This document shows, piece after piece, positions 16,980 to 33,757 of a DNA stretch of 64,000 nt. A program made the translations under genes and the position numbers. Location of the stretch: the NCBI RefSeq assembly GCF_014837295.1, contig NZ_JACYHB010000003.1, positions 124,001 to 188,000 of the forward strand, in the 5' to 3' direction. Source of the DNA: Cellulosimicrobium arenosum. Lineage in GTDB: Bacteria > Actinomycetota > Actinomycetes > Actinomycetales > Cellulomonadaceae. The notes under the pieces are model-generated. The model worked only from the letters and a program-made list of their open reading frames with translations. It made no database searches and was not told where the DNA came from. Every line of letters starts with the position of its first letter. Position 1 is the stretch's first letter.

Positions 16980-18323
16980 GTGCCACGCCACCCGACCGCC
17001 GCCCGGCGCGCGCCCGACTGGTTGCTGCCGGTCGGGGCGGTCGTCCTCGTCGGGGCCGGCGTGCTGCTCCTGGTCTCGTGGGCGCAGGAGATCCGGGGCC
17101 GCGACGGCGTCGTTCTCCTGACCGGCGCGGAGCCGTTCGTCGGGCACTGGGACCTCCGCGTCGGGATGGGCACCGTGGTCGCGGCGGGGGTCGTCGCGGT
17201 CGTCGCGGCGTTCGGCCCGCGCCTGGCCACCACGCTGCGCTGGGGCGCGCTGCTCGCCGCCGCCGGCGGGACGGCGCTCGCGTTCACGGTCGCGCTCGGC
17301 GCCGCGACGTCCTGGGCCGGGCTGACCGACCCGGTGCGCAGCCGGCACGAGTACCTGCCCGTCGTGCCCGACGCCGCGGCCGACCCCGCCGGTTTCGTCG
17401 CCGCGTTCACGGCGCAGGTGGGGGACTACCCCATCCACGTGCGCGGCCACCCGCCGGGGTTCGTCGTCCTCCTCGCCGGGATGGACCGGGTGGGCCTGGG
17501 CGGCGCGGGCTGGGCCGCGGCCCTGATGATCGTCGCGGGGACGAGCGCCGTCGTGGCCGTCGCCGTGACGCTGCGCCGGCTCGGCGGCGACGCGGGGGAG
17601 ACGACGGCGCGGCGCGCCCTGCCCGCCGTCGTCCTCGCGCCCGCGGCCCTGTGGGTCGCGACCACCGCCGACGCGTTCTTCGCCGGGGTCCTCGCGTGGG
17701 GGGTGGCGGCGCTCGCGGTGGCGTCGACGACGTCGCGAGCGTGGGTGCGGTGGGTCGCGGCGGTGGGCGCGGGGGTGCTGCTCGGCGCGTGCCCGTTCCT
17801 GTCCTACGGACTGCTGCACATGGGCGTGCTGGCGCTCGTGGTGCCCTGGGCGACGCGGCGGTGGACGCCGACGCTCGTGGCGGGGGCCGTCGTCGTGCTC
17901 ACGGTGCTGGCCTGGGGCGCGGCGGGGTTCTGGCTGTGGGACGGGCTGGCGGCCACGCACGGCGAGTGGGGCGACGGGTCGGGCACGGGGCGGCCGTACC
18001 TCTACTTCCTGGTGGCCGACGTCGTCCTGCTGGGAGTGCTCGTCGGCCCGGCCGGGACGGGCGGACTGACGCGGGTCGCGCGGCTGGACCGGACCTCGCG
18101 CGCGCTCGTGCTCGTGGCGGTCGCGTCCGCGCTGCTCGGTGCGCTGAGCGGGTTCGAGCGTGGCGAGGTCGAGCGGATCTGGCTGCCGCTGGCCTGCTGG
18201 GTCGCGCCCGCGGCCGCGGCGCTCGTCGACGCCCCGCGACGAGTGGCTGGGTGGCGGTGGTGGATAGCAGCGCAGGGCCTGGCCACCCTGGTCATAGGAG
18301 TGGTCGTCCGCTCCCCGTGGTGA
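16980..18323 (+). CDS. Polytopic membrane glycosyltransferase-like protein, MtxT-like candidate
   Basis: 447 residues with about 11-12 hydrophobic segments and a soluble loop after the third that holds DYPIHVRGHPPGFVVLL (about 140-160). The acidic/His-Pro loop plus many helices is a GT-C-like layout. From memory, length and this loop resemble M. tuberculosis Rv0541c (MtxT), which adds 5-methylthioxylose to lipoarabinomannan using a polyprenyl-linked donor. GTG with GAGGAG 7 nt upstream. Shares the CGTCAG box with the GT2, epimerase, MTA-phosphorylase-like and molybdopterin genes, which supports a joint pathway. The substrate is inferred. Confidence 0.6.
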   Translation: MPRHPTAARRAPDWLLPVGAVVLVGAGVLLLVSWAQEIRGRDGVVLLTGAEPFVGHWDLRVGMGTVVAAGVVAVVAAFGPRLATTLRWGALLAAAGGTALAFTVALGAATSWAGLTDPVRSRHEYLPVVPDAAADPAGFVAAFTAQVGDYPIHVRGHPPGFVVLLAGMDRVGLGGAGWAAALMIVAGTSAVVAVAVTLRRLGGDAGETTARRALPAVVLAPAALWVATTADAFFAGVLAWGVAALAVASTTSRAWVRWVAAVGAGVLLGACPFLSYGLLHMGVLALVVPWATRRWTPTLVAGAVVVLTVLAWGAAGFWLWDGLAATHGEWGDGSGTGRPYLYFLVADVVLLGVLVGPAGTGGLTRVARLDRTSRALVLVAVASALLGALSGFERGEVERIWLPLACWVAPAAAALVDAPRRVAGWRWWIAAQGLATLVIGVVVRSPW

Positions 18324-18348
18324 CCCTCCCGGCCCGCGCCGAGAACAA

Positions 18349-18430
18349 CACCACCCCCCGTCGAGCACGATCTGAGGGTCGCTATCGGTGGGATAACGAC
18401 CCTCAGATCGTGCTCGGCGGGGGGGTGGGT
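18349..18430. repeat. Convergent-junction palindrome, copy A
   Basis: A 25-bp arm (18362-18386) faces its complement (18392-18416) with one mismatch; C-rich and G-rich flanks extend the pairing to about 35 bp. Core CACGATCTGAGGGTCG. It lies between the GT-C-like gene and the TetR gene and contains the TetR stop codon (18403-18405), so the last residues of TetR are encoded by the palindrome. One of four copies in the window; probably a two-way terminator. Confidence 0.8.
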
Positions 18431-18975
18431 GGGGTGGGGGCGTGGGTGAGGCGGCGGAGCGCCGTGAGGACGTCGGCGTCGTCGTGGGGCTCCGTGTCGA
18501 GGGCTCGGTGGATGGTCATGCCCTCGATGAACGCGTCGAGCAGGCGCGCCGTGGTCGGGTCGAAGTGGCGTTCCAGGGTGCGGCGGCTGCGGCGCATCCA
18601 CGGGTGGGTCACGGCGCGGAAGGCGGGCTCGCGCGCGGCGATCGTGTACAGCTCGTGGGTGAGGACGAGGTCGCGCTGGTTCTCGAAGACGTCGTGCGTG
18701 ATGAGTCGCGCGACGGCCTGCACCGCCTCCTCCGGGGTGGTCGCCGGGTCCACCCGGCGCGAGAACTTCGCCGACGCGCCGACGGCGAAGCGTTCGAACG
18801 CTGCCAGCAGCAGCTCGTCCATGCCGGTGAAGTGGTAGGTCATGGACCCGAGCGGGACGTCCGCCGCGGCCGCGACGCGGCGGTGCGACGTGCCCGCGAC
18901 ACCATGCTCCGCGATCACCTCGACGCAGGCGTCGATGATGCGGTCGCGGCGTTCGGGATCGTGGCGGCGGGGCAC
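18403..18975 (-). CDS. TetR/AcrR family regulator
   Basis: 190 residues from GTG. Helix-turn-helix: RDRIIDACVEVIAEHG, then GTSHRRVAAAADVPLGSMTYHF (about 8-50), the standard TetR DNA-binding unit. The rest is the helical ligand/dimer domain. Ends in PTPPTPPPSTI, encoded by palindrome copy A. It is the last gene of a three-gene unit MFS - small ORF - TetR with overlaps of 4 nt and a gap of 2 nt, so it probably represses this operon through the GTACGATCGTAC site upstream of the MFS gene. Confidence 0.9.
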   Translation of the reverse strand: MPRRHDPERRDRIIDACVEVIAEHGVAGTSHRRVAAAADVPLGSMTYHFTGMDELLLAAFERFAVGASAKFSRRVDPATTPEEAVQAVARLITHDVFENQRDLVLTHELYTIAAREPAFRAVTHPWMRRSRRTLERHFDPTTARLLDAFIEGMTIHRALDTEPHDDADVLTALRRLTHAPTPPTPPPSTI

Positions 18976-18977
18976 GG

Positions 18978-20386: not shown

Positions 20387-20388
20387 GC

Positions 20389-20400: not shown

Positions 20401-20442
20401 ACAACGACCGCCCGCTGCGAGAACGGTCCTCCGTCGCGAGGT

Positions 20443-20459
20443 CGTCAGGCACACGTCAG
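20443..20459. promoter_or_regulatory. CGTCAG direct-repeat box 2 (before the molybdopterin gene)
   Basis: CGTCAG at 20443-20448 and 20454-20459, period 11 bp. The box ends 22 bp before TAGGCT (20482-20487), centred near -43: exactly one helical turn closer than boxes 1 and 3. Confidence 0.6.
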
Positions 20460-20493
20460 GCGCGCGGCGCGGGCGCGAACCTAGGCTCGAGGG

Positions 20494-21768
20494 GTGACCG
20501 CCGCCCGCACGCCACCGCGCCGCCTGCCGGGCGTGCCGCGCGCTGAGGACTTCCGCTCCCCGGTGCACGACCCACGGGTCGTCGCGCGGGTCGGGGCGCT
20601 GCTCGGTGGCGCGATCGTCGTCCTGTTCGTCACCGGCCTGCTCTCGCACCTGAGCCAGAACCCCGTGCCCTGGCTGCCGTTCGGGCCGTCGCCGTCGTGG
20701 GGGTACCGGCTGAGCCAGGGTGTTCATGTCACCGTCGGGTTCGCCTGCGTGCCGCTCCTGCTCGCGAAGCTCTACGCGGCCTACCCGCGGCTGTTCGAGC
20801 GGCCCGCGCTGCGCGGTCCGCTCCACGCCCTCGAGCGCGGGTCGGTGGCCGTGCTCGTCGCCGCGACGACGTTCCAGATCGTCACCGGCGTGCTCAACGT
20901 GTTCCAGGTGTACCCGTGGAAGTTCAGCTTCCTGTGGGTGCACTACGCGGCGGCGTGGGTGGTCGTCGGGTCGGTCGTGGTCCACGTCGGGGTGAAGCTC
21001 CCGGTCATCGTCCCCGCGCTGCGGTCGTCGGTCGCCGAACTGCGCGCGGAGGAGTCCGGCGGCGGCCCCCGGCCACCTTCCGTCGTCCCACCCGCCGTCG
21101 TCCCGCCCGCCGGTGTCGCGGCCGACCAGGGTCAGGAGGAAGACCCGGCGCAGGCGGCGACGTCGCGGCGCGGGTTCCTCGCCGCGGTGGCGGTGACGAC
21201 GCTCGGCGTCGTCGCGCTCACCGTCGGCCAGACCGTGCGTCCGCTCGCCCCGTTCGCGGTCCTCGCGCCCCGTGACCCGCGCGTCGGGCCGCAGGGCCTG
21301 CCCGTCAACAAGACCGCCCGCTCGGCCGGGGTCGCCGACACCGCGACCGACCCCGCGTGGCGGCTCGTCCTCACCGGGCCCGGCGGGACGCGCGAGCTCT
21401 CGCGCGACGACCTGCTCGCGATGGACGCCGTCACCGCGGTCGTCCCCATCGCGTGCGTCGAGGGCTGGAGCGCCACCGCGACGTGGGACGGCGTGCGGGT
21501 GCGCGACCTCGTCGCCCTCGTCGGCGGGACGGCCGACGACGACGTGCAGGTCGACAGCCTCCAGCAGGGTGGCTCGTACGCGAGCTCGCTGCTGCCCGGC
21601 GCGTACGTCGCGGCGGAGGACACGCTGCTCGCGCTGCGTCTCGCGGGCGAGGACCTCGACCTCGACCACGGCTACCCGGCGCGTCTCGTCGCGCCGAACC
21701 GCCCGGGCGTGCTCCAGACCAAGTGGGTCGCGAGGATGACGGTGCTGCGCCCGGGGGGTGCCGCGTGA
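20494..21768 (+). CDS. Membrane molybdopterin-dependent oxidoreductase (sulfite-oxidase/MsrP-like) with N-terminal cytochrome-b-like domain
   Basis: 424 residues. Residues 30-175 hold four helices with spaced His (LLSHLSQNP, GVHVTVGF, LWVHYAAAW, VVHVGVKL), a cytochrome b561-like haem-b layout. After a Pro-rich linker, a helix at about 230-250 is preceded by TSRRGF, a twin-arginine-like motif. Residues 270-424 are the oxidoreductase molybdopterin-binding domain with the Mo-ligand Cys in VPIACVEGWSATATWDG. This arrangement reduces or oxidises S- or N-oxides outside the membrane using quinol electrons. GTG lies 6 nt after TAGGCT. Overlaps the next gene by 4 nt. Regulon box 2 links it to the glycosylation genes. 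Confidence 0.8.
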   Translation: MTAARTPPRRLPGVPRAEDFRSPVHDPRVVARVGALLGGAIVVLFVTGLLSHLSQNPVPWLPFGPSPSWGYRLSQGVHVTVGFACVPLLLAKLYAAYPRLFERPALRGPLHALERGSVAVLVAATTFQIVTGVLNVFQVYPWKFSFLWVHYAAAWVVVGSVVVHVGVKLPVIVPALRSSVAELRAEESGGGPRPPSVVPPAVVPPAGVAADQGQEEDPAQAATSRRGFLAAVAVTTLGVVALTVGQTVRPLAPFAVLAPRDPRVGPQGLPVNKTARSAGVADTATDPAWRLVLTGPGGTRELSRDDLLAMDAVTAVVPIACVEGWSATATWDGVRVRDLVALVGGTADDDVQVDSLQQGGSYASSLLPGAYVAAEDTLLALRLAGEDLDLDHGYPARLVAPNRPGVLQTKWVARMTVLRPGGAA

Positions 21769-22250
21769 GCGCCGGCGTGCGCTGGTCGCGCCGCGTGCTC
21801 CTCGTCGGCGGTGCGGCCCTGATCGGGTTCGGCCTGTGGACCGCGTGGTCGACGGTCCCGAGCAGCCAGTGGCCGTCCGCGCTGGTGTGGCTGGCGGGAG
21901 GAGTCGTCGTGCACGACGCCGTGCTCGCCCCTCTCGCGGTCGCCGTCGGCGCGTGGGTGCTGCCCCGCGTCCCGCCCGTGTGGCGGGGCCCGCTGCGGGG
22001 TGGCCTGCTGGCCGCGGGAACGCTGGGGGTGCTCGCGATCGCCCTGGTCGCGGGCGCGGCGGATCGTCGCAACCCGTCCGTCGTCCCGCAGGACCCGCTC
22101 GCCGCGATCGCTGCTGCGGCGATCGCGGTGGTGATCGGCGCCGTCGTCGGGGCGTTCCTCGCGGGCGCGAGGCCCCGCGGGGGAGACCCCGACGCGGACC
22201 GCGCGACGTCGGTCAGTCGCGCCAGGCGGTCAGCAGGTCCTCGGCGCTGA
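21765..22250 (+). CDS. Small membrane protein coupled to the molybdopterin oxidoreductase
   Basis: 161 residues, four hydrophobic segments (about 10-30, 37-65, 78-98, 112-135). The GTG overlaps the upstream stop codon (GTGA), so translation is coupled. The family is not recognised; the position suggests an electron-transfer or assembly partner of the oxidoreductase. Confidence 0.7.
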   Translation: MSAGVRWSRRVLLVGGAALIGFGLWTAWSTVPSSQWPSALVWLAGGVVVHDAVLAPLAVAVGAWVLPRVPPVWRGPLRGGLLAAGTLGVLAIALVAGAADRRNPSVVPQDPLAAIAAAAIAVVIGAVVGAFLAGARPRGGDPDADRATSVSRARRSAGPRR

Positions 22251-22556: not shown

Positions 22557-23222
22557 TCAGCCTCGCGCCGCACGCCTGAGCACGACGACGGTCCGCCCGC
22601 TCGCGGCCCACTCCTCGGTCGCGTCGAGCCCGGCCTCGGCGGCGACGACGCGCAGCGCGTGCGCGCCCAGCCGCGCCCAGGGCATCGGTCGGCTCAGGCG
22701 GCCGTCGGCCGCACGCAGCACGACGGGCGTGACGTCGTGCGCGTCGGGGTCCGGGTCGGTCTCGACGAGCACGGCGCCGTGGGGCCGCACGAGCTCGCGG
22801 CAGCGGGTCAGGAGCGCGACCGGGTCGCCGCCGATCCCGATGTTGCCGTCCGCGAGGAGGACCGTGCCCCAGCGGCCCTCGCCGGGCAGCGCCGCCTCGA
22901 CCGCGCGCCGCAGGGCGACGGCCCCGCGGTCGCGCGCCTGGCGCACGGCCGCGCGGGAGACGTCGATGCCGAGGCACGGGACGCCGCGCCGCGACAGCTC
23001 TGCGGCCAGCCGGCCGGGGCCGCAGCCGACGTCGAGCACCGGGGCCTCGCACCGCGCGAGCAGCACCTCGTCCGACGGCGTGGCCGGCGCGGCCCAGGTG
23101 CGGACGTCGAGCGGGCGGGCGCCGGTCTCGCCCAGCGCGACGACGGACTCGCCGCCGAGGGCGGCGTCGAAGAGCACGACCGGGTGGACCCGGCGCGGCG
23201 TCCGGGAGATGGCCTCCGTCAT
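22557..23222 (-). CDS. Class I SAM-dependent methyltransferase
   Basis: 221 residues. Rossmann-type methyltransferase with motif I VLDVGCGPGRLAAELSRRG (about 62-80), the acidic strand LGIDVSRAAV, and LLADGNIGIGGDP before the motif IV strand. Third gene of the GT2 - DUF2064 - methyltransferase operon, joined by ATGA overlap. Acceptor unknown; context suggests a sugar, lipid carrier or thio-sugar intermediate. Not part of the M. tuberculosis Rv0535-Rv0541c set as I recall it, so it may mark a variant product. Confidence 0.85.
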   Translation of the reverse strand: MTEAISRTPRRVHPVVLFDAALGGESVVALGETGARPLDVRTWAAPATPSDEVLLARCEAPVLDVGCGPGRLAAELSRRGVPCLGIDVSRAAVRQARDRGAVALRRAVEAALPGEGRWGTVLLADGNIGIGGDPVALLTRCRELVRPHGAVLVETDPDPDAHDVTPVVLRAADGRLSRPMPWARLGAHALRVVAAEAGLDATEEWAASGRTVVVLRRAARG

Positions 23223-23896
23223 CGCGCCGCCACCTCCGAGCGCTCCGTGACCTCGCGCCACCTCCGCGCGAACCGTGTCCCGGGCGCCGCGGCGGCGACG
23301 GCTCGCGCGTCGTCCGGTTCGTCGACGTCGCGCAGCGTCGGCAGCAACCCCACGGACAGCCCGCACGAGCGCAGCCGGTCGAGCTGCGCGGCGCCGGTCG
23401 TCGGCTCGGACATCGGCACCCCGACGAACAGGTCCGGGTCGGGCGCGCGCAGCCCGACCGCCCAGAACCCGCCGTCCTCCGCCATCCCGAGCACCGCGTC
23501 GTGACCGTCCAGGTCGACGGCGGCGAGCTGCGGCGCGAGCTGCGGCGTGTCCATCCCGACGAGCAGCACCGGTCCGGGGTGGGCCGCGAACGTGTCGTCG
23601 AACGCTCCCGCGAGCCGCCGGTCGAGCCCGCCGGCGACCTGCGGGTACACCACGAAGCCGGGCGGCACCCACGAGCCGGGCTCGCCGTCCAGCACGAGCA
23701 CGTGGTCCCCGGGCAGCGCCGCGACGGCGTCGAGCGTGTCGCCGAGCGCCGCGGCCGCGACGTCGGCCGCCTGCTCCGGCGTGAGGAGGCTGGTCAGGCG
23801 CGTCTTGGACCGCCCGGGCGCGGGCGCCTTGGCGAGCACGACGACGGTGCGCGGCGGCTCGACCGGCCGCGCGGGCCGGGCAGGAGCCCCGGTCAT
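23219..23896 (-). CDS. DUF2064 / TIGR04282-type nucleotidyl- or glycosyltransferase-like protein
   Basis: 225 residues, GT-A/CofC-like fold. Seen: VVVLAKAPAPGRSKTRLTSLLTP at the start (the nucleotide-binding loop with Lys and Arg), LLVGMDTPQLAP (acidic DxxxP motif), DAVLGMAEDGGFWAVGL, and MSEPTTGAAQLDRL. From memory the homologue Rv0540 sits beside the GT2 gene in M. tuberculosis. NCBI calls the family arsenosugar glycosyltransferase, but the fold also fits activation of a sugar phosphate. Overlaps both neighbours by 4 nt, so the three proteins are made together. Confidence 0.8.
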   Translation of the reverse strand: MTGAPARPARPVEPPRTVVVLAKAPAPGRSKTRLTSLLTPEQAADVAAAALGDTLDAVAALPGDHVLVLDGEPGSWVPPGFVVYPQVAGGLDRRLAGAFDDTFAAHPGPVLLVGMDTPQLAPQLAAVDLDGHDAVLGMAEDGGFWAVGLRAPDPDLFVGVPMSEPTTGAAQLDRLRSCGLSVGLLPTLRDVDEPDDARAVAAAAPGTRFARRWREVTERSEVAAR

Positions 23897-24585: not shown

Positions 24586-24602
24586 CTGACGATCGCCTGA
24601 CG
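24586..24602. promoter_or_regulatory. CGTCAG direct-repeat box 3 (between the GT2 operon and the two-component genes)
   Basis: On the minus strand CGTCAG occurs twice with an 11-bp period (24586-24591, 24597-24602). It lies 33 bp from the TACCGT -10 of the GT2 gene, the same spacing as box 1. It also lies 59 bp upstream of the TACTGT -10 of the response-regulator gene, so it could serve both directions. Confidence 0.6.
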
Positions 24603-24673: not shown

Positions 24674-25414
24674 ATGACCACTGCCGAGGCCGACGAGCGC
24701 CGTGCGCCCGCGCCGGGCGTGACGTCGCGCGTCCTCGTCGTCGACGACGACACGCTGACGGCCACCAGCGTCTCCGCGCACGTCACGGCCGCCGGGCACG
24801 CCGCACGCGCCGCGACGGACGCGACCGAGGGCGAGCGGCTGTGGCGCACCTGGGAGCCGGACGCCGTCGTGCTCGACGTGCGGCTGCCGGGGCGCTCCGG
24901 GCTGGACCTGCTCGCGCGGCGTCGGGCCGACGGGGACGGGACGCCGGTGCTGCTGCTGTCCGGCCTCGGGTCGGTCGACGACCGGATCGGCGGTCTCGAG
25001 GTCGGCGCCGACGACTACGTGGTCAAGCCGTTCGACGCGCGCGAGCTCGTGCTGCGCGTCGAGGCGCTGCTGCGCCGCGGGCCAGGACTGGTGGAGAACG
25101 CGCCGACGCGCGTCGTCGTGGGCGACCTCGTCGTGGACGGCGGCGAGCGTACCGCGACCTACCGCGGTCAGACCGTGGCGCTGACGCCGCGCGAGTTCGC
25201 GCTGCTCGACTTCCTCGCGCGGTACCCGGGCCGTTCGTTCGGCCGCGCCGAGCTGCTGCGGCGCGTGTGGGGCTGGAGCTTCGGCGACGACTCGACCGTC
25301 ATGGTGCACGTGCGCCGGCTGCGCGCGAAGCTCGAGGACGACCCGGCCGACCCCGTGCTGATCGTCAACGTCCGCGGTGCCGGGTACACCCTGATGGAGG
25401 TGGCGGCGCGATGA
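24674..25414 (+). CDS. OmpR/PhoB-family response regulator
   Basis: 246 residues. Receiver domain 18-130 with acidic pair VVDDD, phospho-acceptor in VVLDVRLPG (about D76), LLLSG and VVKPFDARELVLRV (Lys about 118). C-terminal winged helix (about 145-240) with LTPREFALLDFLARYPG, VWGWSFGDDSTVMVHVRRLRAKL and RGAGY. This class binds tandem 10-11-bp direct repeats, the geometry of the CGTCAG boxes. Leaderless ATG 6 nt after TACTGT. Overlaps the sensor kinase gene by 4 nt. A 17-residue disordered lead precedes the receiver. Confidence 0.92.
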   Translation: MTTAEADERRAPAPGVTSRVLVVDDDTLTATSVSAHVTAAGHAARAATDATEGERLWRTWEPDAVVLDVRLPGRSGLDLLARRRADGDGTPVLLLSGLGSVDDRIGGLEVGADDYVVKPFDARELVLRVEALLRRGPGLVENAPTRVVVGDLVVDGGERTATYRGQTVALTPREFALLDFLARYPGRSFGRAELLRRVWGWSFGDDSTVMVHVRRLRAKLEDDPADPVLIVNVRGAGYTLMEVAAR

Positions 25415-26601
25415 CCGACGTCGGGTTCATGCTGCTGGTCACCGCCGCGTGCGCGGTGGTGGTGGGGTTCCTCGGAGCGTGGGCGGTGCGTCGGGCCGGG
25501 CGGGTGTCGCTCGTGCTCGCGCTCGTCCTGGCCGCGCTCGTCCCGTTCGCCGCCGTCGTGGTCGCGCTGACGGTGAACGTGTCCGCGATGTTCCTGTCCG
25601 AGCACGACGCCGGGGTGGTGCGGCTCGTCCTGATCGCGTCCTCGGTGCTCGCGGTCGTGATCGCGCTCGTCCTCGGGCGGACCGTGGCCGACGACGCGCG
25701 GCAGGTCCGCGAGCTCGCCCGCCGGCTCGGGGACGACGCCGGCGGGGCGGCAGCGACGTCGGGTGACGGGTCGCCGGCGTCCACCCCGAGCGCGGCGCCG
25801 GCGACCGCGGAGCTCGCCTACGTCGTCGCCGAGCTCGAGCAGACGCAGCGACGCCTGGACGCGGCCCGCGAGAGCGAGCGCGCCGCGCAGGCGGCGCGGC
25901 GCGAGGTCGTCGCGTTCGTCAGCCACGACCTGCGCTCGCCGCTCGCCGGTGTCCGCGCCGCCGCCGAGGGTCTGCAGGACGGCGTGTTCGCCGACCCGCG
26001 CCCGGCGCTCGACGGCATCGTGGCCGCGACCGAGCGCATGGCTCACATGATCGAGGACCTCGCCGAGCTGGCCCGGGACGACCGGCCCCGGGCACGTCCC
26101 GCCGCCCAGGAGGTCGACGTCGCCGTGGTGCTCGAGCGCGTCGCCGCGCACGCCCGCCCGCTCGCGGGCTCGGTGGGCGTCGAGCTGCGGGTCGAGGTGG
26201 GCGCGGACGTCCGCGTGCCCGGGGATCCCGGGGAGATCGAGCGGGTCCTGGACAACCTGGTCGCGAACGCCGTGCGGGCGAGCGGGCACGAGGCGCGGGG
26301 CGCCCGTGGAGCTGTCTCGGGGCACGGCGGGCCCGCCGGCGTCGTGACCGTGGAGGCGAGGATCGTGGACGGGGCGGCGCGCGTCGTCGTGCACGACACG
26401 TGCGGGGGCATCCCGGCCGACGCGCTGCCGCACCTGGCGACGGCCGGTTACCAGGTCGCGGACGGGCCGGCGGGGTCCGCCGGGCTCGGGCTCGCGTTCG
26501 TCGACCGTGTGGTGGACCAGCACGGCGGGAGCCTCGACGTCGCGTCCTCCGACGACGGGTGCCGCGTCGAGGTGCGCCTGCCGGCGACGGGTCGTGCGTG
26601 A
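25411..26601 (+). CDS. Membrane sensor histidine kinase
   Basis: 396 residues. Three to four helices in the first 95 residues with only short loops outside, so the signal is probably sensed within or near the membrane. Then a HAMP-like/coiled segment, the H-box VVAFVSHDLRSPLAGVRAAAEG (His about 172), N-box VLDNLVANAVRAS, G1 VHDTCGGIP and G2 GSAGLGLAFVDRVV. Signals to the regulator encoded 4 nt upstream in the same operon. The inserted GHEARGARGAVSGHGG loop before G1 is unusual but does not break a motif. Confidence 0.9.
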   Translation: MTDVGFMLLVTAACAVVVGFLGAWAVRRAGRVSLVLALVLAALVPFAAVVVALTVNVSAMFLSEHDAGVVRLVLIASSVLAVVIALVLGRTVADDARQVRELARRLGDDAGGAAATSGDGSPASTPSAAPATAELAYVVAELEQTQRRLDAARESERAAQAARREVVAFVSHDLRSPLAGVRAAAEGLQDGVFADPRPALDGIVAATERMAHMIEDLAELARDDRPRARPAAQEVDVAVVLERVAAHARPLAGSVGVELRVEVGADVRVPGDPGEIERVLDNLVANAVRASGHEARGARGAVSGHGGPAGVVTVEARIVDGAARVVVHDTCGGIPADALPHLATAGYQVADGPAGSAGLGLAFVDRVVDQHGGSLDVASSDDGCRVEVRLPATGRA

Positions 26602-27501: not shown

Positions 27502-28542
27502 TTAGCGCGTGACCAGGTTTGCCAGGCCTTCGGGCGCCCGGATGTGGGCGTGCCAGCTCAGGACGCTTGCGGCCCTGGCGCTCGACGCCGTGACGTGGCG
27601 GACGTCGCCTCCGCGCCACTCGCCCGTGACCACCGGCTCCGGGGCGTCGAGGAGCGCGGCGACGCGGCGCGCGACGTCCCCGATCGTCGTCACCTCGCCG
27701 GAGCCGACGTTGAAGGGCTCGACCCGGCCGGGGCCCTGCGGCTGCTCGGCGGCGGCGAGGACGGCGCGCGCGACGTCGTCCACGTGCACGAGGTCGCGGC
27801 GCTGGCCGCCGTCCTCGAACACGCGCGGCGCGCGGCCGTGCTCGGCCTCGGAGCGGAAGATCGAGACGACTCCCGCGTACGGGGTGTCGCGCGGCATGCC
27901 CGGGCCGTAGACGTTGTGGAACCGCAGCGCGGTCGCGGTCGCCCCCGTCGCGCGGGTCCACGCGGCGAGGACGTGCTCGCCGTGCACCTTCGTCGCGGCG
28001 TAGACGTTGCGCGGGTCGAACGGCGCGTCCTCGGCGACCAGGCCGGGCGTCAGGACGCTGCCGCACACCGGGCAGCGCGGGTCGAACACGCCGGCCGCGA
28101 GGTCGGCCTCGTCCCGCGGCGGCGCCGGCTGGGTCCCGTGCTCCGCGCAGGAGTAGGCGCCCTCGCCGTAGACGACCATCGAGCTCGCGAACACGACGTG
28201 GGGGACCGCCTCCTGCGTGGCCGCTGCCCGCAGCAGGACCGCGGTCCCCAGGTCGTTCGACGACACGTAGTCGTCCACGTCGTCGATCCCGACGCCGAGA
28301 CCGACCTTCGCGGCCAGGTGCACGACGACGTCCCGCCCGTCCAGCGCCTCGCCGACCACGTCCGGGTCCCGCACGTCGCCGCGGACGACCGGGACGCCGT
28401 CCGGCAGCGTGGGTGGCGGCCGGTCCCCGTGGACGTCCGCCCGCAGCGAGTCGAGGACGCGGACGTCGTGGCCGGCGGCGGCGAGGGTGCGGACGGCGGC
28501 GGACCCGATGAAGCCCGCCCCGCCCGTGACGAGGATGCGCAT
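27502..28542 (-). CDS. GalE-like NAD-dependent sugar epimerase with a zinc-finger-like insert
   Basis: 346 residues, extended short-chain dehydrogenase. Seen: RILVTGGAGFIGSAAVRTL (NAD loop), VVHLAAKVGLG, FASSMVVYGEG, the YAATK catalytic pair (Tyr/Lys about 175-179), LRFHNVYGPGMP and RDLVHVDDVARAV. Between Ser and Tyr there is an insert with SCAEHG and RCPVCG, which could bind zinc. Length and insert match M. tuberculosis GalE3/Rv0536 as I remember it. In that pathway an epimerase could turn a methylthio-ribose unit into the xylo form. Leaderless ATG 6 nt after GATGCT; box 4 is 34 bp further up. Confidence 0.85.
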   Translation of the reverse strand: MRILVTGGAGFIGSAAVRTLAAAGHDVRVLDSLRADVHGDRPPPTLPDGVPVVRGDVRDPDVVGEALDGRDVVVHLAAKVGLGVGIDDVDDYVSSNDLGTAVLLRAAATQEAVPHVVFASSMVVYGEGAYSCAEHGTQPAPPRDEADLAAGVFDPRCPVCGSVLTPGLVAEDAPFDPRNVYAATKVHGEHVLAAWTRATGATATALRFHNVYGPGMPRDTPYAGVVSIFRSEAEHGRAPRVFEDGGQRRDLVHVDDVARAVLAAAEQPQGPGRVEPFNVGSGEVTTIGDVARRVAALLDAPEPVVTGEWRGGDVRHVTASSARAASVLSWHAHIRAPEGLANLVTR

Positions 28543-28588: not shown

Positions 28589-28605
28589 CTGACGGTCGCC
28601 TGACG
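28589..28605. promoter_or_regulatory. CGTCAG direct-repeat box 4 (before the epimerase gene)
   Basis: Minus strand CCGTCAGGCGACCGTCAGCC, repeats at 28589-28594 and 28600-28605. Identical over 20 bp to box 5. Centred about -55 from the epimerase start. Confidence 0.6.
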
Positions 28606-28642: not shown

Positions 28643-29485
28643 TCAGGCGCGGCGCTCGCGGCGGTAGAGCCTGCGGGACCAGACGTAGCCCGCGACCCCG
28701 ATCGCCACGCACCAGGCGACCGCCTGTGCCGCGACGCTGCCCTCGAGGCCGGCGCCGCCGGCGAGCAGGCCCCGGGTCGTCTCGATGATCGGGGTGAAGG
28801 GCTGGTGCTCGGCGAACCAGCGCACCGCGCCGGGCATGGTCTCGACGGGGACGAAGCCGCTGCCGAGGAACGGCAGCAGGAGCAGCAGCATGGGTGCGTT
28901 GCTCGCCGTCTCGACGCTGCGCGAGCTCAGGCCCATCGCGACGCACAGCCAGTTGAGAGCGAGCCCGAGCAGGACGAACAGGCCGACGAGGGCGAGCCAG
29001 TCGAGCGCGTCGGCGTCGGGCCGGTAGCCCATCGCGACCGCGGCACCGAGCACGAGGACGAGGGCGGCGAGCGCCTGCACCACGAACCCGAGCACCTGCC
29101 CGGACAGCACGGAGCCTGGCGCGATCGCCATGGTCTTGAACCGGGCCATGATCCCGGTCGTGGCGTCCATCGCGGCGCTGGTCGCGACCGACGTCGCGCC
29201 GCCGACCATGGTGATCACGAGCAGCGTCGGCGTGATGTAGTCGAGGTAGGCGGCGCGTCCCTCCGCGCCGGTTGTGACGCCGGGGGCGACACCGGCGCCG
29301 AAGGCTCCGCCGAAGACGTAGACGAACAGCACGAGCATGACCAGCGGCCCGGCGACGAGGAACACGGTCAGGCCCGGGTAGCGCACGGCGCGCAGCAGGC
29401 TGCGCCGCAGCATGATCAGGACGTCGGCGACCGGGCGTGGACGCGCGGTCGGCGGAGCGACGGGGGCGGTGGCGACGGTGGTCAT
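28643..29485 (-). CDS. ABC-2 type transporter permease (DrrB-like)
   Basis: 280 residues, six helices. Starts with a Pro/Thr-rich tail, then VLIMLRRSLLRAVRYPGLTVF, and has the ABC-2 signature region FLGSGFVPVETMPGAVRWFAEHQPFTPIIE (landmark about 215-245). Its ATG overlaps the ATPase stop codon by 4 nt. Forms an exporter with that ATPase, probably for a drug or lipid. Confidence 0.9.
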   Translation of the reverse strand: MTTVATAPVAPPTARPRPVADVLIMLRRSLLRAVRYPGLTVFLVAGPLVMLVLFVYVFGGAFGAGVAPGVTTGAEGRAAYLDYITPTLLVITMVGGATSVATSAAMDATTGIMARFKTMAIAPGSVLSGQVLGFVVQALAALVLVLGAAVAMGYRPDADALDWLALVGLFVLLGLALNWLCVAMGLSSRSVETASNAPMLLLLLPFLGSGFVPVETMPGAVRWFAEHQPFTPIIETTRGLLAGGAGLEGSVAAQAVAWCVAIGVAGYVWSRRLYRRERRA

Positions 29486-30288
29486 CGGACGTTCTCCTTG
29501 TCGTTCACGGACGAGGGCGCGGGGTCGGTGGGCTCGAGCTCGGTGGACGGCTCGGTCAGGGCCAGGAACACGTCGTCGAGCGAGCCGGTGTCGTGCACCG
29601 CCTTGAGCTCGGCCGGGGTGCCCTCGGCCACGATGCGGCCGTCGTTCAGCACGGCGACCGAGTCGGCGAGCTGGTCGGCCTCCTCGAGGTACTGGGTGGT
29701 GAGCAGGATCGTGGTGCCCGCGGTCACGAGCGACCGGACCTCGTCCCACAGGGTGCGACGGCTGCGGGGGTCGAGCCCCGTCGTGGGCTCGTCGAGGAAG
29801 ACGACGGACGGGGCGCCGACGAGCGTCATCGCGAGGTCGAGCTTGCGCCGCATGCCGCCCGAGTACGTCGCCACGGTCCTGCCGGCGGCCTCGGTGAGGC
29901 CGAAGCGTTCCAGCAGCTCGGCGCAGCGGCGTCGGCCGCGGGCCCGGCCGAGGTGGTGCAGGTCGGCCATGAGGTGCATGTTCTCGAGGCCGGTGAGCAG
30001 GTCGTCGACGGCGGTGATCTGACCCGTGACGCCGATCGAGGCACGGACGGCACCGGGCTCGCGGGCGATGTCGTGGCCGGCGACGCGGACGGTGCCGGCG
30101 TCCGCCCGCAGCAGGGTCGACAGCACGCCGACGGCGGTGGTCTTGCCGGCCCCGTTGGGGCCGAGCAGTGCGGTCACGGTGCCCGCGGGGACGGCGAGGT
30201 CGATCCCGTCGAGCACGAGCTGGGTGCCGGCCTTCGAGCGGTAGGACTTGCGCAGCCCCCGGACGTCGATGGCGAGGTTCTCGTCCAT
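29482..30288 (-). CDS. ABC transporter ATP-binding protein (DrrA-like)
   Basis: 268 residues. Walker A GPNGAGKTTAVGV (about 43-55), signature TYSGGMRRKLDLAM, Walker B VVFLDEPTTGLDPRSRR and the H-loop TTQYLEEADQLAD. The C-terminal extension with FLALTEPSTE is the daunorubicin-resistance type. Third gene of RHH - DUF4097 - ATPase - permease; the RHH protein and its 11-bp repeats probably set expression. Confidence 0.92.
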   Translation of the reverse strand: MDENLAIDVRGLRKSYRSKAGTQLVLDGIDLAVPAGTVTALLGPNGAGKTTAVGVLSTLLRADAGTVRVAGHDIAREPGAVRASIGVTGQITAVDDLLTGLENMHLMADLHHLGRARGRRRCAELLERFGLTEAAGRTVATYSGGMRRKLDLAMTLVGAPSVVFLDEPTTGLDPRSRRTLWDEVRSLVTAGTTILLTTQYLEEADQLADSVAVLNDGRIVAEGTPAELKAVHDTGSLDDVFLALTEPSTELEPTDPAPSSVNDKENVR

Positions 30289-30315
30289 GGTCTCTTCTCC
30301 TGGGTGTGGTGGGTC

Positions 30316-31158
30316 TCAGGGGCGACGGACGACGATGTCGCCGTAGCCGGTGGTGGCACGCACCTCGGCGGTGGCCTCGTCCTCGACGGGGCCCGCCGTG
30401 GGGGTCAGGCGGTTGCGGACGGAGCCGTGCTCCGACGCGACGTCCAGATGGGCGGCGACCCCCTCGGGCACGCCGATCTCGATGCTCCCGAACGACGTGG
30501 TGAGCGACACGCTGCCGGACTCGAGGTCGTTCACCTGGATCCCCGCGTGGGCGGAGCGGGCGACGACGGCACCGCGGACCCGACCGAGCGCGATGTCCCC
30601 GTGCGCCCCGACGACCTCGAGGGAACCGGTGACCGAGCCGACGGTGGTGGTGCCGTTGCTCGCCCGGATCGTGCCGTCGCCGGCGATCTCGCCGACCCGC
30701 ACGCTGCCCGCGCCGACCTTGATGTCCGTGGTCCCGAGCGCCCGGCCGACGACCGCGGAGCCGGCCGAGACCTTGAGGGTGAGCCGGTCCACGTCGTCGA
30801 GCCGGGCGTCGCCCGCGGACAGCGTCATGTCGACGACGCCGAGCGCGCCCTCGGCGAGGAGCGCGCCGGCCTTGCCCCGGACGTCCGAGCCCGCGGGCAG
30901 CTCGACGGTGACGTTCGCGGTGCCGGCGGCGAACGGGAGGACGAACTGCTTCCAGGAGCCCGGGTAGGTGATCGTGACGGCGTCGCCGTCGCGCTCGACG
31001 CGGACGTCCTGGGCGGCCCGGACGCTGCCGGACTTCGTGGGGTCGGTGGGCAGGACGGTGACCACGACGTCCTCGCGCTCCCCGGCGACGACGTGCACGT
31101 TCGCGAACGGCACCTCGACGACGACCGGGACGGGGTGGGTGGTGGGGAAGGTGGGCAT
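30316..31158 (-). CDS. DUF4097 beta-strand-repeat protein
   Basis: 280 residues with about 12 short repeats of the type LTLKVSAGSAVVGRALG / IKVGAGSVRVGEIAG, a beta-helix like DUF4097/DUF4098 adhesin-like folds. No signal peptide or helix, so cytoplasmic. GGGAG lies 5 nt before the ATG. In actinobacteria such genes commonly sit between an RHH gene and an ABC transporter, as here; the role is unknown. Confidence 0.8.
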   Translation of the reverse strand: MPTFPTTHPVPVVVEVPFANVHVVAGEREDVVVTVLPTDPTKSGSVRAAQDVRVERDGDAVTITYPGSWKQFVLPFAAGTANVTVELPAGSDVRGKAGALLAEGALGVVDMTLSAGDARLDDVDRLTLKVSAGSAVVGRALGTTDIKVGAGSVRVGEIAGDGTIRASNGTTTVGSVTGSLEVVGAHGDIALGRVRGAVVARSAHAGIQVNDLESGSVSLTTSFGSIEIGVPEGVAAHLDVASEHGSVRNRLTPTAGPVEDEATAEVRATTGYGDIVVRRP

Positions 31159-31252
31159 GGCAAGGCTCCCTCGATGGCGGGTTCGATCGGGTGGTGTCGC
31201 TGTGAGTCGCGGTGGTGTCAGCCGGCGGTGCCGGCGGAGGGCGGAGGGCTGG

Positions 31253-31804
31253 TCAGCGCACCCAGCCGGTGATGCGGTTCCCTGAGCGCTGTGCGGGCCG
31301 GTCCTGTGCCGCGGGCCGACCGGTGGCCTGCTCGAGCGCGGCGGAGACGCTGCGCACGAGCCAGGTGTTGACGGAGACGCCGTCGCGGGCGGCGGCCACC
31401 TCGACCTGCGACTTGAGGTGGTCGGGCAGGCGCAGGGTGGTGCGGGTCGTGGCCGCCGAGACCGCGTCGGCGTCCGCGTCCGCGACCTGCGACGGCGCGG
31501 TTTCCGGGGACGGCACGGAGCCTGCTCTCGGCGCGGGCAGGTCCCCTTGGTCGGCGGGCACCGCGGGTGCGGTGACGACGAACTCCGGCGACCCGCCGCG
31601 CAGGCGGACGTCCACGGAGCCGGGCGCGAGCTCGGCCGAGATCTCCCCGGCCGCGTCCGAGAGGGCGTCGAGGAGGACGAGCCGCGCGGCGGCGTCCAGG
31701 GGTGCGGTCAGGCGGCCGGCGAGGTCGCGTGCCTCGTCGCCGCCCGCGGCGGCAGCGGTGGCGAGCTGCCGGTGCAGCTCGTCGACGTATCGGGTGATCT
31801 CCAT
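31253..31804 (-). CDS. Regulator with C-terminal RHH domain (HicB/Arc-like)
   Basis: 183 residues: a helical N-terminal part (1-45), a beta-rich middle (50-80), an Ala/Asp-rich linker and an RHH domain at about 117-160 (TTRTTLRLPDHLKSQVEVAA, then DGVSVNTWLVRSVSAAL). Likely a DNA-binding regulator of its own operon, since an array of TATGAC half-sites with 11-bp spacing covers its start codon. First gene of the ABC exporter operon. Confidence 0.85.
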   Translation of the reverse strand: MEITRYVDELHRQLATAAAAGGDEARDLAGRLTAPLDAAARLVLLDALSDAAGEISAELAPGSVDVRLRGGSPEFVVTAPAVPADQGDLPAPRAGSVPSPETAPSQVADADADAVSAATTRTTLRLPDHLKSQVEVAAARDGVSVNTWLVRSVSAALEQATGRPAAQDRPAQRSGNRITGWVR

Positions 31805-31836
31805 GACGCCACTATGACACCACTATGACGTCATGG
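31801..31836. promoter_or_regulatory. Array of ATGAC half-sites over the RHH start codon
   Basis: CATGAC, TATGAC and TATGAC start at 31802, 31813 and 31824 (11-bp spacing), and an inverted GTCATGG ends the array, so CCATGACG (31801-31808) faces CGTCATGG (31829-31836). RHH dimers bind such short sites side by side on one DNA face. Confidence 0.65.
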
Positions 31837-31850
31837 CAAGAGGGTTGGTG

Positions 31851-32747
31851 TCACCTCGTGTTTCGGCACGCACGCGCGGGGAGCAGACCTGCCCGGGGCT
31901 CGCCGAGCCCGAGCATCGCGACCGCGACCTCGCCGGCGGCTGCGTCGGGGATCGCCGTCGCGGCCTCGAGCACGAGCAGCGTCGCACCGGGGATCTCGCG
32001 TGCGAGGGCTCGGCCGTTGCCGACCGGGAAGAACGGGTCGCGGGCGCCGTGCACCACCAGCGTGGGGACCGCGAGGTCGGTGAGCCGCTCGCGCCAGCGC
32101 GGCGTGCAGTCGAGCGCGGCGAAGATCGTGCCCAGCTGGTTGGCCATCTGCACCGCGGGCCCCGTGCCGGGGGTGCGGTCCCACGTGCGCCCGGCACGCT
32201 CCTGCGCGGCGGCAGGGTCGTTGCCGAGGATCTCCGCTCCTGCGGCGGCGAACTCCGCCACCGCGGCGCGGTCGGACCAGTCGGGCTTCGAGCGGGAGAA
32301 CAGCCGACGCATGGTCGCGGCGTCATGATCGGGCAGGTCGTCGTCGGCCGGCCCCGGAGCGACGGGTCGCGTCCCGACGAGAGTCAGGGCGGAGAACGCT
32401 GCCGGGTGGTCGAGGGCCGCGACCTGGGCGACCATCCCGCCGACGCCGATCCCGGCCAGGTGCGCCGGCCGGTCGTCGAGCGCGCGGGCGAGCGCCGCTG
32501 CATCGGCGGCAAGGTCTCGCAGCGTGTACTGCGGAGCGGCGGGATCGAGGGTGGTGGAGGCGCCGGCGTCGCGCAGGTCGTACCGCACGACGTGGCGACC
32601 GCCGCCGGCGAGCGCGGCGCACAGCGCGTCGGGCCAGGAGAGCATGGTCGTCCCGCCTGCGAGCAGCACGAGCGGTGCTGTGTCGTCGCCGAAGTGCTCG
32701 ACCCCGAGCGTCACCCCGCCGACCTCGACCGTCGTCGTCACGTCCAT
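31851..32747 (-). CDS. Alpha/beta-hydrolase fold protein lacking catalytic residues
   Basis: 298 residues with the fold's order: VVRYDLRDAGAST, the nucleophile elbow region LAGIGVGGMVAQVAALDHP, and VPTLVVHGARDPFFPVGNG. The elbow reads G-I-G-V-G-G where active enzymes have G-x-S-x-G-G, so the Ser is Gly. The His expected after the last strand (GHDLP in relatives) is replaced by ATAIP. The acidic Asp remains. Probably a pseudoenzyme, or a binding protein. ATG 32747; its stop is 47 bp before the RHH gene start, so read-through into that operon is possible. Confidence 0.75.
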   Translation of the reverse strand: MDVTTTVEVGGVTLGVEHFGDDTAPLVLLAGGTTMLSWPDALCAALAGGGRHVVRYDLRDAGASTTLDPAAPQYTLRDLAADAAALARALDDRPAHLAGIGVGGMVAQVAALDHPAAFSALTLVGTRPVAPGPADDDLPDHDAATMRRLFSRSKPDWSDRAAVAEFAAAGAEILGNDPAAAQERAGRTWDRTPGTGPAVQMANQLGTIFAALDCTPRWRERLTDLAVPTLVVHGARDPFFPVGNGRALAREIPGATLLVLEAATAIPDAAAGEVAVAMLGLGEPRAGLLPARACRNTR

Positions 32748-32860
32748 GAGGCTCCGTCCGTCGTGGGCAGCAGGCCGCCCGGGTTCGGGACAGCCTTCGA
32801 CACCGTTGACGATCCCCGCCGCGGGAACTCATCGCGGCACGTGCACCCGACCGCCGGCGG

Positions 32861-32877
32861 CTGACGGTCGCCTGACG
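32861..32877. promoter_or_regulatory. CGTCAG direct-repeat box 5 (before the MTA-phosphorylase-like gene)
   Basis: CTGACG at 32861-32866 and 32872-32877, that is CGTCAG repeats on the minus strand, 48 bp before TAGCGT (32926-32931). Orientation is opposite to boxes 1-4 relative to the gene, but 20 bp are identical to box 4. Confidence 0.5.
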
Positions 32878-32938
32878 GTCCGGCCGCCACGCATCCCGGC
32901 CGGGCGACGTCGGGCCCGGAACGGCTAGCGTGACGGTC

Positions 32939-33757
32939 GTGACCGACACGACTGAGCCCGTGGGGATCCTCGGCGGATCCGGCCTGTACCGACTCCTCGA
33001 CGCCCCGGAGCCCGTGGCGGTGGCGACGCCGTTCGGCGACCCGTCCGACCCGCCCAGCCGCGGCACCTTCGCCGGTCGGCCGGTGGTGTTCCTGCCCCGC
33101 CACGGAGCCGACCACCGATTCCCGCCGCATCGCGTCAACTACCGCGCGAACCTGTGGGCGCTGCGGTCCCTGGGGGTGCGGCAGGTCGTCGCGGCGTCGG
33201 CCGTGGGCGGGCTGAGGCCGGAGCTGACGGCGGGGACCGTCGTCGTGCCGGACCAGGTGGTGGACCGCACGTGGGGCCGCGAGCACACGGTGTACGACGG
33301 CGAGGGGCCGGTCGTGCACGTGCCGTTCGCCGACCCGTACTGCCCACGAGGGCGCCCCGTCGCGGTCCGTGCCGCGCGGGCGGGGACGCTGCCCGCCGTC
33401 GACGGCGGCACGATGGTCGTCATCCAGGGGCCGCGGTTCTCCAGCCGCGCCGAGTCGCGGCGCAACGCGGCGGAGGGCGGGAGCGTCGTCGGGATGACGG
33501 GGATGCCCGAGGCGGCGATCGCGCGCGAGCTCGCCCTCTGCTACACGTCGCTCGCGCTCGTCACGGACGCCGACGCAGGGGTCGACGTCGAGTCGTCGGT
33601 GACGCACGCGGCCGTGCTCGAGGCGTTCGCGCGCAACGTCGTCGCGCTGACGGCGGTGCTGCACGACGTCGTCGCGGCCCTGCCCGCCGACGACGACTGC
33701 CCCTGCCGCCACGTCCTGGACGGCCTGGACCTGCCGGCGTCCGTCGCCGGCCCGTGA
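32939..33757 (+). CDS. Purine nucleoside phosphorylase family 2, MTA-phosphorylase-like
   Basis: 272 residues. Cleaves purine nucleosides with phosphate; the MTA branch makes adenine and 5-methylthioribose-1-phosphate. Seen: GILGGSGLYRLL (phosphate loop), FLPRHGADHRFPPHRVNYRANLWALRSLG, VAASAVGGLRPEL, VIQGPRFSSRAESR, VVGMTGMPEAAIARELALCY and LVTDADAGVD, where the Asp pair fits 6-amino purines. Matches Rv0535 as recalled. The GTG at 32939 lies 7 nt after TAGCGT and is preferred over the GTG at 32930, which overlaps that box. A hairpin overlaps the stop. Confidence 0.85.
   Translation: MTDTTEPVGILGGSGLYRLLDAPEPVAVATPFGDPSDPPSRGTFAGRPVVFLPRHGADHRFPPHRVNYRANLWALRSLGVRQVVAASAVGGLRPELTAGTVVVPDQVVDRTWGREHTVYDGEGPVVHVPFADPYCPRGRPVAVRAARAGTLPAVDGGTMVVIQGPRFSSRAESRRNAAEGGSVVGMTGMPEAAIARELALCYTSLALVTDADAGVDVESSVTHAAVLEAFARNVVALTAVLHDVVAALPADDDCPCRHVLDGLDLPASVAGP

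What the first reader, a model, noticed from the sequence alone, without database searches (positions are those of the whole stretch)
16980..33757. Scattered homologue set of the mycobacterial methylthioxylose pathway with extra enzymes
From memory, M. tuberculosis Rv0535 (MTA phosphorylase), Rv0536 (GalE3), Rv0539 (GT2), Rv0540 (DUF2064) and Rv0541c (MtxT membrane transferase) form a cluster for 5-methylthioxylose on lipoarabinomannan. All five types occur here, at 32939, 27502, 23893, 23219 and 16980, with similar lengths, and share the CGTCAG box. This lineage lacks mycobacterial LAM, so a new acceptor glycan is likely. The added SAM methyltransferase (22557) and extracytoplasmic molybdopterin oxidoreductase (20494) could modify the product, for example the sulfur oxidation state. 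This may be an undescribed cell-envelope thio-sugar system.
Basis: partly seen in the sequence, partly recalled or inferred. Interest (0 to 1): 0.92.

Follow-up and report, generated by a model that had tools for sequence, protein, structure and literature searches.

The report
Probable methylthio-sugar envelope gene cluster
This stretch holds a jointly switched gene set that probably makes a rare sulfur-containing sugar and hangs it on the cell surface; the sugar is known from the tuberculosis group, but relatives of the gene set turn up in other actinobacteria that lack the tuberculosis-type surface polymer.

Summary
The five homologues are real and belong together. Window proteins match a named mycobacterial cluster (M. 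szulgai) at 33-55% identity: MtxT-type membrane protein, GT2, DUF2064, epimerase, MTA phosphorylase. Five of the eight exact CGTCAG-N5-CGTCAG sites in the 3.95 Mb genome lie in this 16 kb, each upstream of a gene of the set. It is a cluster split by insertions: all 8 MtxT-bearing order relatives found keep MtxT, GT2, DUF2064, methyltransferase and molybdopterin oxidoreductase together. A new small membrane protein accompanies the oxidoreductase in 45 of 45 loci and none of 83 others; a two-component system is often present. Some mycobacteria carry everything, others a trimmed form. The window genome lacks Emb arabinosyltransferases and MTR-1-P isomerase: the acceptor is not Emb-made arabinan, and MTAP is probably dedicated. 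Best reading: a regulated methylthio-pentose envelope system of which the mycobacterial MTX pathway is a reduced form. Product, acceptor and the roles of methyltransferase and oxidoreductase are unproven; 6 of 37 MtxT+ genomes lack MTAP; M. tuberculosis genes themselves were not fetched.

The parts
16897..16913 (+). regulatory box CGTCAG-N5-CGTCAG upstream of the MtxT-like gene
   Evidence: an exact site also precedes MtxT in same-genus G897
16980..18323 (+). MtxT-like polytopic membrane glycosyltransferase candidate (447 aa)
   Evidence: 33% identity over 432 aa, E 5e-46, to the M. szulgai homologue; conserved E/D124, GHPPG and ExER-W motifs; many hydrophobic segments; 1 of 37 aligned homologues hits PMT_2 at 9e-5
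20443..20459 (+). regulatory box upstream of the molybdopterin oxidoreductase
20494..21768 (+). cytochrome b561-like membrane part + RR-x-x-L motif + molybdopterin domain of the SO/MsrP superfamily, presumed extracytoplasmic
   Evidence: PF00174 81.7 bits; three invariant His in the membrane part and invariant IACVEGWS; PDB profile hits to sulfite oxidases and MsrP-like entries
21768..22250 (+). small membrane protein with W-x-HD-x-P motif, constant neighbour of the oxidoreductase
   Evidence: 45 of 45 oxidoreductase loci, 44 of them directly downstream on the same strand; 0 of 83 loci without oxidoreductase; no Pfam
22557..23222 (-). class I SAM-dependent methyltransferase
   Evidence: PF13649 and others; conserved CGPGR and DGNxGIGG motifs; of 128 loci with oxidoreductase in 44, alone in 7
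23219..23896 (-). DUF2064 / TIGR04282 nucleotidyltransferase-like protein
   Evidence: PDB profile hits 3cgx and CofC; only one match in the genome
23893..24540 (-). GT2 glycosyltransferase, polyprenyl-phosphate sugar synthase type (MtxS-like)
   Evidence: PF00535; PDB profile best hits dolichol monophosphate mannose synthase and an undecaprenyl-phosphate formamido-arabinose transferase
24586..24602 (-). regulatory box between GT2 and the response regulator (divergent)
   Evidence: exact site before GT2 also in G897 and G116
24674..25414 (+). OmpR-type response regulator
   Evidence: PF00072, PF00486; in 5 of 8 order and 11 of 20 phylum loci
25411..26601 (+). membrane sensor histidine kinase
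   Evidence: HisKA, HATPase_c; in 4 of 8 order and 11 of 20 phylum loci
27502..28542 (-). GalE-like NAD-dependent sugar epimerase
   Evidence: PDB profile hits to nucleotide-sugar epimerases
28589..28605 (-). regulatory box upstream of the epimerase
32861..32877 (-). regulatory box upstream of MTA phosphorylase; same 17-bp core as at 28589 (one divergent site in G897)
32930..33757 (+). S-methyl-5'-thioadenosine phosphorylase
   Evidence: PRK07823 368.5 bits; only match in the genome at E<=1e-40

Best explanation
An extended, two-component-controlled version of the mycobacterial methylthioxylose (MTX) pathway that decorates a cell-envelope glycan other than Emb-type arabinan. Proposed steps: MTAP splits methylthioadenosine into adenine and 5-methylthioribose-1-phosphate (family shown; step inferred). 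DUF2064 activates it to a nucleotide sugar (inferred). The epimerase turns ribo into xylo or another configuration (inferred). GT2 moves the sugar to polyprenyl phosphate (family shown; substrate inferred). An unknown flippase and the MtxT-like protein transfer it to a glycan outside the membrane (homology shown; activity inferred). The b561-molybdopterin oxidoreductase with its small membrane partner acts outside on the sulfur, most likely reducing the sulfoxide back to the methylthio form with electrons from quinol; the methyltransferase most likely O-methylates the donor sugar (both inferred, weaker). The sensor kinase and regulator switch the set through the CGTCAG direct repeats (sites shown; binding inferred).
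For: Homology and shared neighbourhood with named mycobacterial clusters, incl. M. frederiksbergense, where all nine protein types tested match. Conserved core in 8 of 8 order relatives and in other classes. Five upstream boxes of eight in the genome, matched by exact sites at three of the places in G897. In the order, MTAP is in 8 of 9 MtxT+ genomes against 3 of 19 without MtxT, p 0.0004, host kinship not corrected. No MtnA in the own genome, so the usual salvage route for the MTAP product is missing. MTAP genes next to the cluster fall in separate clades of an MTAP tree (5 changes, all forced by well supported branches), as repeated recruitment, or old linkage often lost, would give. Published: MTX uses a decaprenyl-linked donor, starts from MTA and needs a GT-C enzyme (PMC11127046, passage); anti-oxidative properties of MTX proposed, and a cited title names a natural carbohydrate substrate of M. 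tuberculosis MsrA (PMC10503756, passages and reference list; that this is the MTX sulfoxide is recalled).
Against: No product known. Six of 37 MtxT+ genomes have no MTAP at the cut used, and in the six genomes of family f21 tested (large genomes, Streptomyces by my guess) both MTAP and MtnA are present with MTAP unlinked. Outside the order MTAP presence does not differ between MtxT+ (23 of 28) and MtxT- (16 of 24) genomes, p 0.22. MtnA is missing from all 28 order genomes tested, also the 19 without MtxT, so its lack is a lineage trait. The oxidoreductase scores far below every curated subfamily cut-off. The methyltransferase has no diagnostic relative. Boxes are not recognisable in most more distant clusters, and same-genus genomes hold 1-9 exact sites each, so single sites elsewhere mean little. 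GT-C fold untested: structure prediction was off.
Confidence: 0.6

Rival explanations
1. The same machinery makes and transfers another pentofuranose (for example from adenosine or 5'-deoxyadenosine) and not a thio-sugar; MTX is a mycobacterial specialisation that came with MTAP.
For: MTAP found within only 3 of 20 phylum stretches (the stretches are 20 kb or less, and in G415 it lies just outside) and missing from 6 of 37 MtxT+ genomes; an archaeal MTA phosphorylase is called highly promiscuous (PMC6302742, passage).
Against: In the window genome MTAP has the same box upstream, is the only copy, and MtnA is absent; MTAP sits in 5 of 8 order clusters and together with all eight other types in 10 of the 80 loci.
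Confidence: 0.22
2. The oxidoreductase, small membrane protein, methyltransferase and two-component system are an independent envelope redox module that only shares the regulator with the sugar genes.
For: Exact boxes also lie at moeA / a thioredoxin-like gene with a CcdA-like neighbour and at a second molybdopterin oxidoreductase, though single sites may be background; many mycobacteria keep the sugar genes without the module.
Against: Conserved adjacency over the phylum, with the methyltransferase usually following DUF2064. Loci were found through MtxT, so a module without sugar genes could not appear (not tested).
Confidence: 0.22
3. Arsenosugar-type pathway, as the TIGR04282 name suggests.
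For: DUF2064 passes the TIGR04282 cut-off, 136.9 against 134 bits.
Against: GT2 far below TIGR04283 (36.5 against 182 bits); the radical SAM family TIGR04167 is over its cut-off in 0 of 37 MtxT+ genomes (35 show only weak matches; all 14 control genomes ring too, one over the cut-off).
Confidence: 0.03
4. Housekeeping methionine salvage plus unrelated glycan genes lying together by chance.
For: MTAP is the first salvage enzyme.
Against: MtnA absent; conserved cluster and shared boxes.
Confidence: 0.02

Closest known systems
Mycobacterial MTX capping pathway (MtxS/MtxT; Rv0535-Rv0541c, locus tags and their roles partly recalled)
   Same: MtxT-type membrane protein, polyprenyl-phosphate-type GT2, DUF2064, GalE-like SDR, MTAP; all five in one neighbourhood in M. 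szulgai and M. gastri
   Different: Adds two-component system with shared upstream boxes, SAM methyltransferase, b561-molybdopterin oxidoreductase and small membrane partner; genome without Emb
Three-component extracytoplasmic glycosylation (Gtr systems; GT136 ribofuranose system, PMC11127046, passages)
   Same: Polyprenyl-phosphate donor synthase plus GT-C-like transferase (inferred)
   Different: Donor presumably from MTA rather than PRPP or a nucleotide hexose; no flippase identified
MsrP/YedY and SoxC/SorA molybdoenzymes
   Same: PF00174 family and Cys motif
   Different: Joined to a b561-like part; below all curated cut-offs; own small membrane partner
TIGR04282/TIGR04283 arsenosugar-associated transferases
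   Same: DUF2064 passes TIGR04282
   Different: No TIGR04283-grade GT2, no TIGR04167 over cut-off

Membership tests
MTX pathway (mtx cluster) | MtxT-family membrane transferase | tested here: met
   33% over 432 aa, E 5e-46 to the M. szulgai homologue; the M. tuberculosis protein itself was not fetched
MTX pathway (mtx cluster) | GT2, DUF2064, GalE-like SDR and MTAP in the same neighbourhood | tested here: met
MTX pathway (mtx cluster) | LAM (Emb-made arabinan with mannose caps) as acceptor | tested here: not met
   PF04602 without match in the own genome; found in 3 of 18 MtxT+ genomes, two of them of the Mycobacterium genus. Mannan-type lipoglycans not tested
MTX pathway (mtx cluster) | Product is 5-deoxy-5-methylthio-xylofuranose | not testable with these tools
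   needs envelope chemistry
GT-C glycosyltransferases | GT-C fold with acidic residue in first outer loop | tested here: inconclusive
   hydrophobic segments and conserved E/D124; PMT_2 hit in 1 of 37 homologues; no PDB sequence hit; structure prediction off
MsrP / sulfite dehydrogenase equivalogs | score over curated NCBIfam cut-off | tested here: not met
   34.8 bits against 420 for SoxC; 27.7 against 207 for MsrP
Arsenosugar cluster | ArsS-type radical SAM protein (TIGR04167) present | tested here: not met
   0 of 37 genomes over cut-off
Methionine salvage | MtnA present to use the MTAP product | tested here: not met
   no TIGR00512 match in own genome

The most novel reading that the evidence does not exclude
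A phylum-wide, self-repairing antioxidant sugar coat: a sensor kinase of envelope oxidation turns on synthesis of a methylthio-pentose from MTA, the sugar is hung on a wall glycan as a sacrificial thioether, and a quinol-driven b561-molybdopterin reductase with a dedicated small membrane subunit regenerates it from the sulfoxide. The tuberculosis-type MTX cap would be a trimmed remnant of this system.
Probability: 0.22. Interest if true: 0.92.

Novelty: new variant of a known kind. Interest (0 to 1): 0.76.

Why it matters
A 2024 paper states that it is unclear whether the MTX reaction exists outside LAM assembly (PMC11127046, passage), and a 2023 review calls MTX a unique residue of the M. tuberculosis complex group and says its presence in LAM of other mycobacteria is not known (PMC10675199, passages). 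The cluster here gives genes, a regulator, candidate tailoring enzymes and non-pathogenic organisms in which to test this, and predicts thio-sugars in actinobacterial envelopes where nobody has looked, as far as the listings of my paper searches show.

Tried and rejected
Arsenosugar reading: rejected on TIGR04167 and TIGR04283. Methionine salvage: rejected on MtnA. CutRS-type regulator: its published motif (TAWATAAA) is unlike the box (PMC12802291, passages). Small membrane protein as flippase: unlikely, since it is absent from clusters lacking the oxidoreductase. The exact box G000:C29:55153 has a different spacer and no matching gene context and is probably chance. An early small-protein profile held wrong-frame rows and was replaced, whose 16 training rows (the window and 15 loci) include loci that were counted. 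I first gave the small protein to NCBIfam in the wrong frame and rescanned the right frame against Pfam only. Attempts to reach the M. tuberculosis member did not identify it; one search used too strict a cut-off and was wasted. Paper searches on methylthioxylose with Streptomyces, on DUF2064 and on methylthio sugars showed no report of such a cluster in the listed titles and abstract starts (one search listed 10 of 72); the key MTX paper (PMC5357196) is not held.
Full report
Observation. Corrected map: MtxT-like 16980-18323 +; TetR 18403 - and MFS 19088 -; b561-molybdopterin oxidoreductase 20494-21768 +; small membrane protein 21768-22250 +; methyltransferase 22557-23222 -; DUF2064 23219-23896 -; GT2 23893-24540 -; response regulator 24674-25414 +; histidine kinase 25411-26601 +; a gene at 26692-27429 + that looks glyoxalase-like to my eye (no NCBIfam family; not scanned against Pfam); epimerase 27502-28542 -; an ABC/DUF4097/HicB-type/hydrolase block to 32747; MTAP 32930-33757 +.

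The box. CGTCAG-N5-CGTCAG occurs exactly 8 times in the 3.95 Mb genome; 5 of the 8 are at window 16897, 20443, 24586, 28589 and 32861, upstream of the MtxT-like gene, the oxidoreductase, GT2/response regulator, the epimerase and MTAP. The reversed control pattern has no exact match in this genome; over 17 genomes of the genus the pattern has 72 exact matches (1-9 each) and the control 5. For 5 of 8 in 16 kb the binomial p is 6e-11, a post hoc figure; a first-order Markov model of the window expects 0.07 per 64 kb and, scaled, 4.3 per genome. So it is the crowding in this stretch that is remarkable, not the genome total. A window scan allowing one mismatch is not significant (10 found, 6.8 expected). 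In the same-genus genome G897 (L236) the whole cluster recurs and exact sites lie before MtxT, between GT2 and the regulator, and between the epimerase and MTAP, but none before the oxidoreductase. There one divergent site serves epimerase and MTAP; in the window the two genes are split by an inserted block and each has the same 17-bp core, so the box was probably copied (their wider flanks are not alike: 61 of 137 positions equal). In G116 an exact site lies before GT2 and a one-mismatch site before the oxidoreductase; in G074 only weaker look-alikes lie before GT2, the oxidoreductase and between epimerase and MTAP; in most more distant clusters the window motif is not recognisable.

A conserved cluster. 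A protein search with the MtxT-like gene found 9 of 119 genomes of the order, the own one included, and, with a profile, 58 of 396 of the phylum, four of them only at E above 1e-5. All 8 other order genomes carry MtxT, GT2, DUF2064, methyltransferase and oxidoreductase within about 8 kb. Counting hits over 60 bits in the fetched stretches: order, 8 loci: GT2, DUF2064, methyltransferase and oxidoreductase 8 each, epimerase 7, MTAP 5, regulator 5, kinase 4. Phylum, 20 loci that I chose out of the matches: GT2 18, DUF2064 17, epimerase 16, methyltransferase 15, oxidoreductase 13, regulator and kinase 11 each, MTAP 3 (in G415 MTAP lies just outside the stretch). Mycobacterium genus, 20 stretches of 19 genomes: GT2 and DUF2064 19 each, epimerase 17, MTAP 14, methyltransferase 9, regulator and kinase 8 each, oxidoreductase 7. 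The 80 loci, all but one (L198) titled Mycobacterium, Mycolicibacterium or Mycobacteriaceae, several cut short by contig ends: GT2 and DUF2064 78 each, epimerase 59, MTAP 57, methyltransferase 19, oxidoreductase 17, regulator 16, kinase 15. Some of these loci are the same genomes as fetched ones (for example L141 and the contig of L053 have equal length). At 60 bits a regulator or epimerase may be an unrelated family member.

Link to the MTX pathway. Of the 84 loci (L122-L205, hits over 100 bits), 47 show exactly MTAP, epimerase, GT2, DUF2064 and MtxT, and 10 show the full set with regulator, kinase, methyltransferase and oxidoreductase; the other 27 hold partial sets, many on short contigs. 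M. szulgai and M. gastri are of the first kind, M. frederiksbergense of the second. Against M. szulgai (L123) the window proteins give 33% (MtxT), 42% (DUF2064), 55% (GT2), 51% (epimerase) and 52% (MTAP); against M. frederiksbergense (L200) all nine types match. Thus both kinds and the window cluster are one family of clusters; the simplest history is trimming in some mycobacteria, although no host tree was used to test this. The published facts I saw: MTX uses a decaprenyl-phosphate donor, starts from MTA and needs a GT-C enzyme, and it is unclear whether this exists outside LAM (PMC11127046, passages); MtxS and MtxT are named as the glycosyltransferases (PMC8081860, passages); Rv0541c is an uncharacterised GT-C in a 2011 review (PMC3229680, passages). 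Which Rv number belongs to which step beyond that is recalled.

Acceptor. PF04602 (Emb) has no match in the own genome and is present in 3 of 18 MtxT+ genomes tested: two of the Mycobacterium genus and G087. So the acceptor is not Emb-made arabinan in 15 of these 18.

MTAP. At E<=1e-40 it is in 31 of 37 MtxT+ and 19 of 43 MtxT- genomes tested; within the order 8 of 9 against 3 of 19 (p 0.0004), outside it 23 of 28 against 16 of 24 (p 0.22). I chose these 80 handles out of those without knowing their MTAP state, except for the cluster MTAPs already seen; the MtxT- state of unlisted handles follows from their absence from the match lists of those calls. Host relatedness is not corrected for. MtnA is absent from all 28 order genomes tested, with or without MtxT; among MTAP+ genomes it is lacking in 24 of 31 with MtxT and 7 of 19 without, p 0.007. 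In a tree of 35 MTAPs (15 cluster ones; 20 others that I picked out of those, one of which, G116, lies about 14 kb from MtxT) the cluster label needs 5 changes, all forced by well supported branches; two outlying rows have very long branches. Either repeated recruitment or old linkage often broken would give this. Both fit a functional tie. Against a uniform thio-sugar: six MtxT+ genomes have no MTAP.

The extra module. Over 128 loci methyltransferase and oxidoreductase are both present in 44, both absent in 76, methyltransferase alone in 7, oxidoreductase alone in 1. A small membrane protein (21768-22250) accompanies the oxidoreductase in 45 of 45 loci, 44 of them directly downstream on the same strand, and occurs in 0 of 83 others. 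The oxidoreductase family has three invariant histidines in its membrane part, a twin-arginine-like RR-x-x-L, and the invariant IACVEGWS with the presumed cofactor-binding Cys (the role of the Cys is recalled). A profile hits sulfite oxidases best and MsrP-like entries weakly (which entries are MsrP is recalled); curated subfamilies are not reached. I infer a quinol-linked enzyme acting on oxidised sulfur outside the membrane. In its favour, anti-oxidative properties of MTX are proposed in print and a cited title names a natural carbohydrate substrate of M. tuberculosis methionine sulfoxide reductase A (PMC10503756, passages and reference list; the cited paper itself not seen). Two further exact boxes lie at moeA with a thioredoxin-like/CcdA-like pair and at a second molybdopterin oxidoreductase (the CcdA label is mine, it has no Pfam hit), which would suit a regulator of envelope redox enzymes, but no homologue of these genes lay at the 8 exact sites of G897, and single sites may be background.

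Verdict. A new, larger variant of a known pathway, real at the level of genes, arrangement and shared upstream sites; the chemistry is a prediction, not a result.

Noticed in passing
G000:C12:208504 (L019) and G000:C30:200388 (L021): The same box lies between moeA and a thioredoxin-like gene, and beside a second molybdopterin oxidoreductase with an Ig-like domain; possible wider redox regulon, or background.
   Followed up: partly
window 28643-32747: ABC transporter, DUF4097, HicB-type and alpha/beta hydrolase block between epimerase and MTAP; in G897 homologues of the ABC, DUF4097 and HicB-type genes lie on another contig (L239).
   Followed up: partly
window 27502-28542: The epimerase family consensus carries a Cys/His-rich insert ending in CPxCG that looks like a zinc ribbon.
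   Followed up: no
window 34935-36215: NYN domain joined to an OST-HTH/LOTUS domain.
   Followed up: no
window 52091-55480: 1129-codon ORF with unusual codon-position composition (first-position GC 0.58, third 0.97).
   Followed up: no
G565:C1:2457000 and G600:C1:2680700: Two 3.3 Mb genomes of the Mycobacterium genus hold only decayed MtxT fragments with stops.
   Followed up: no
L120 (G548:C1:4192000-4211900): A second MtxT-type gene (51% to the query) without the rest of the cluster within the 20 kb fetched.
   Followed up: no
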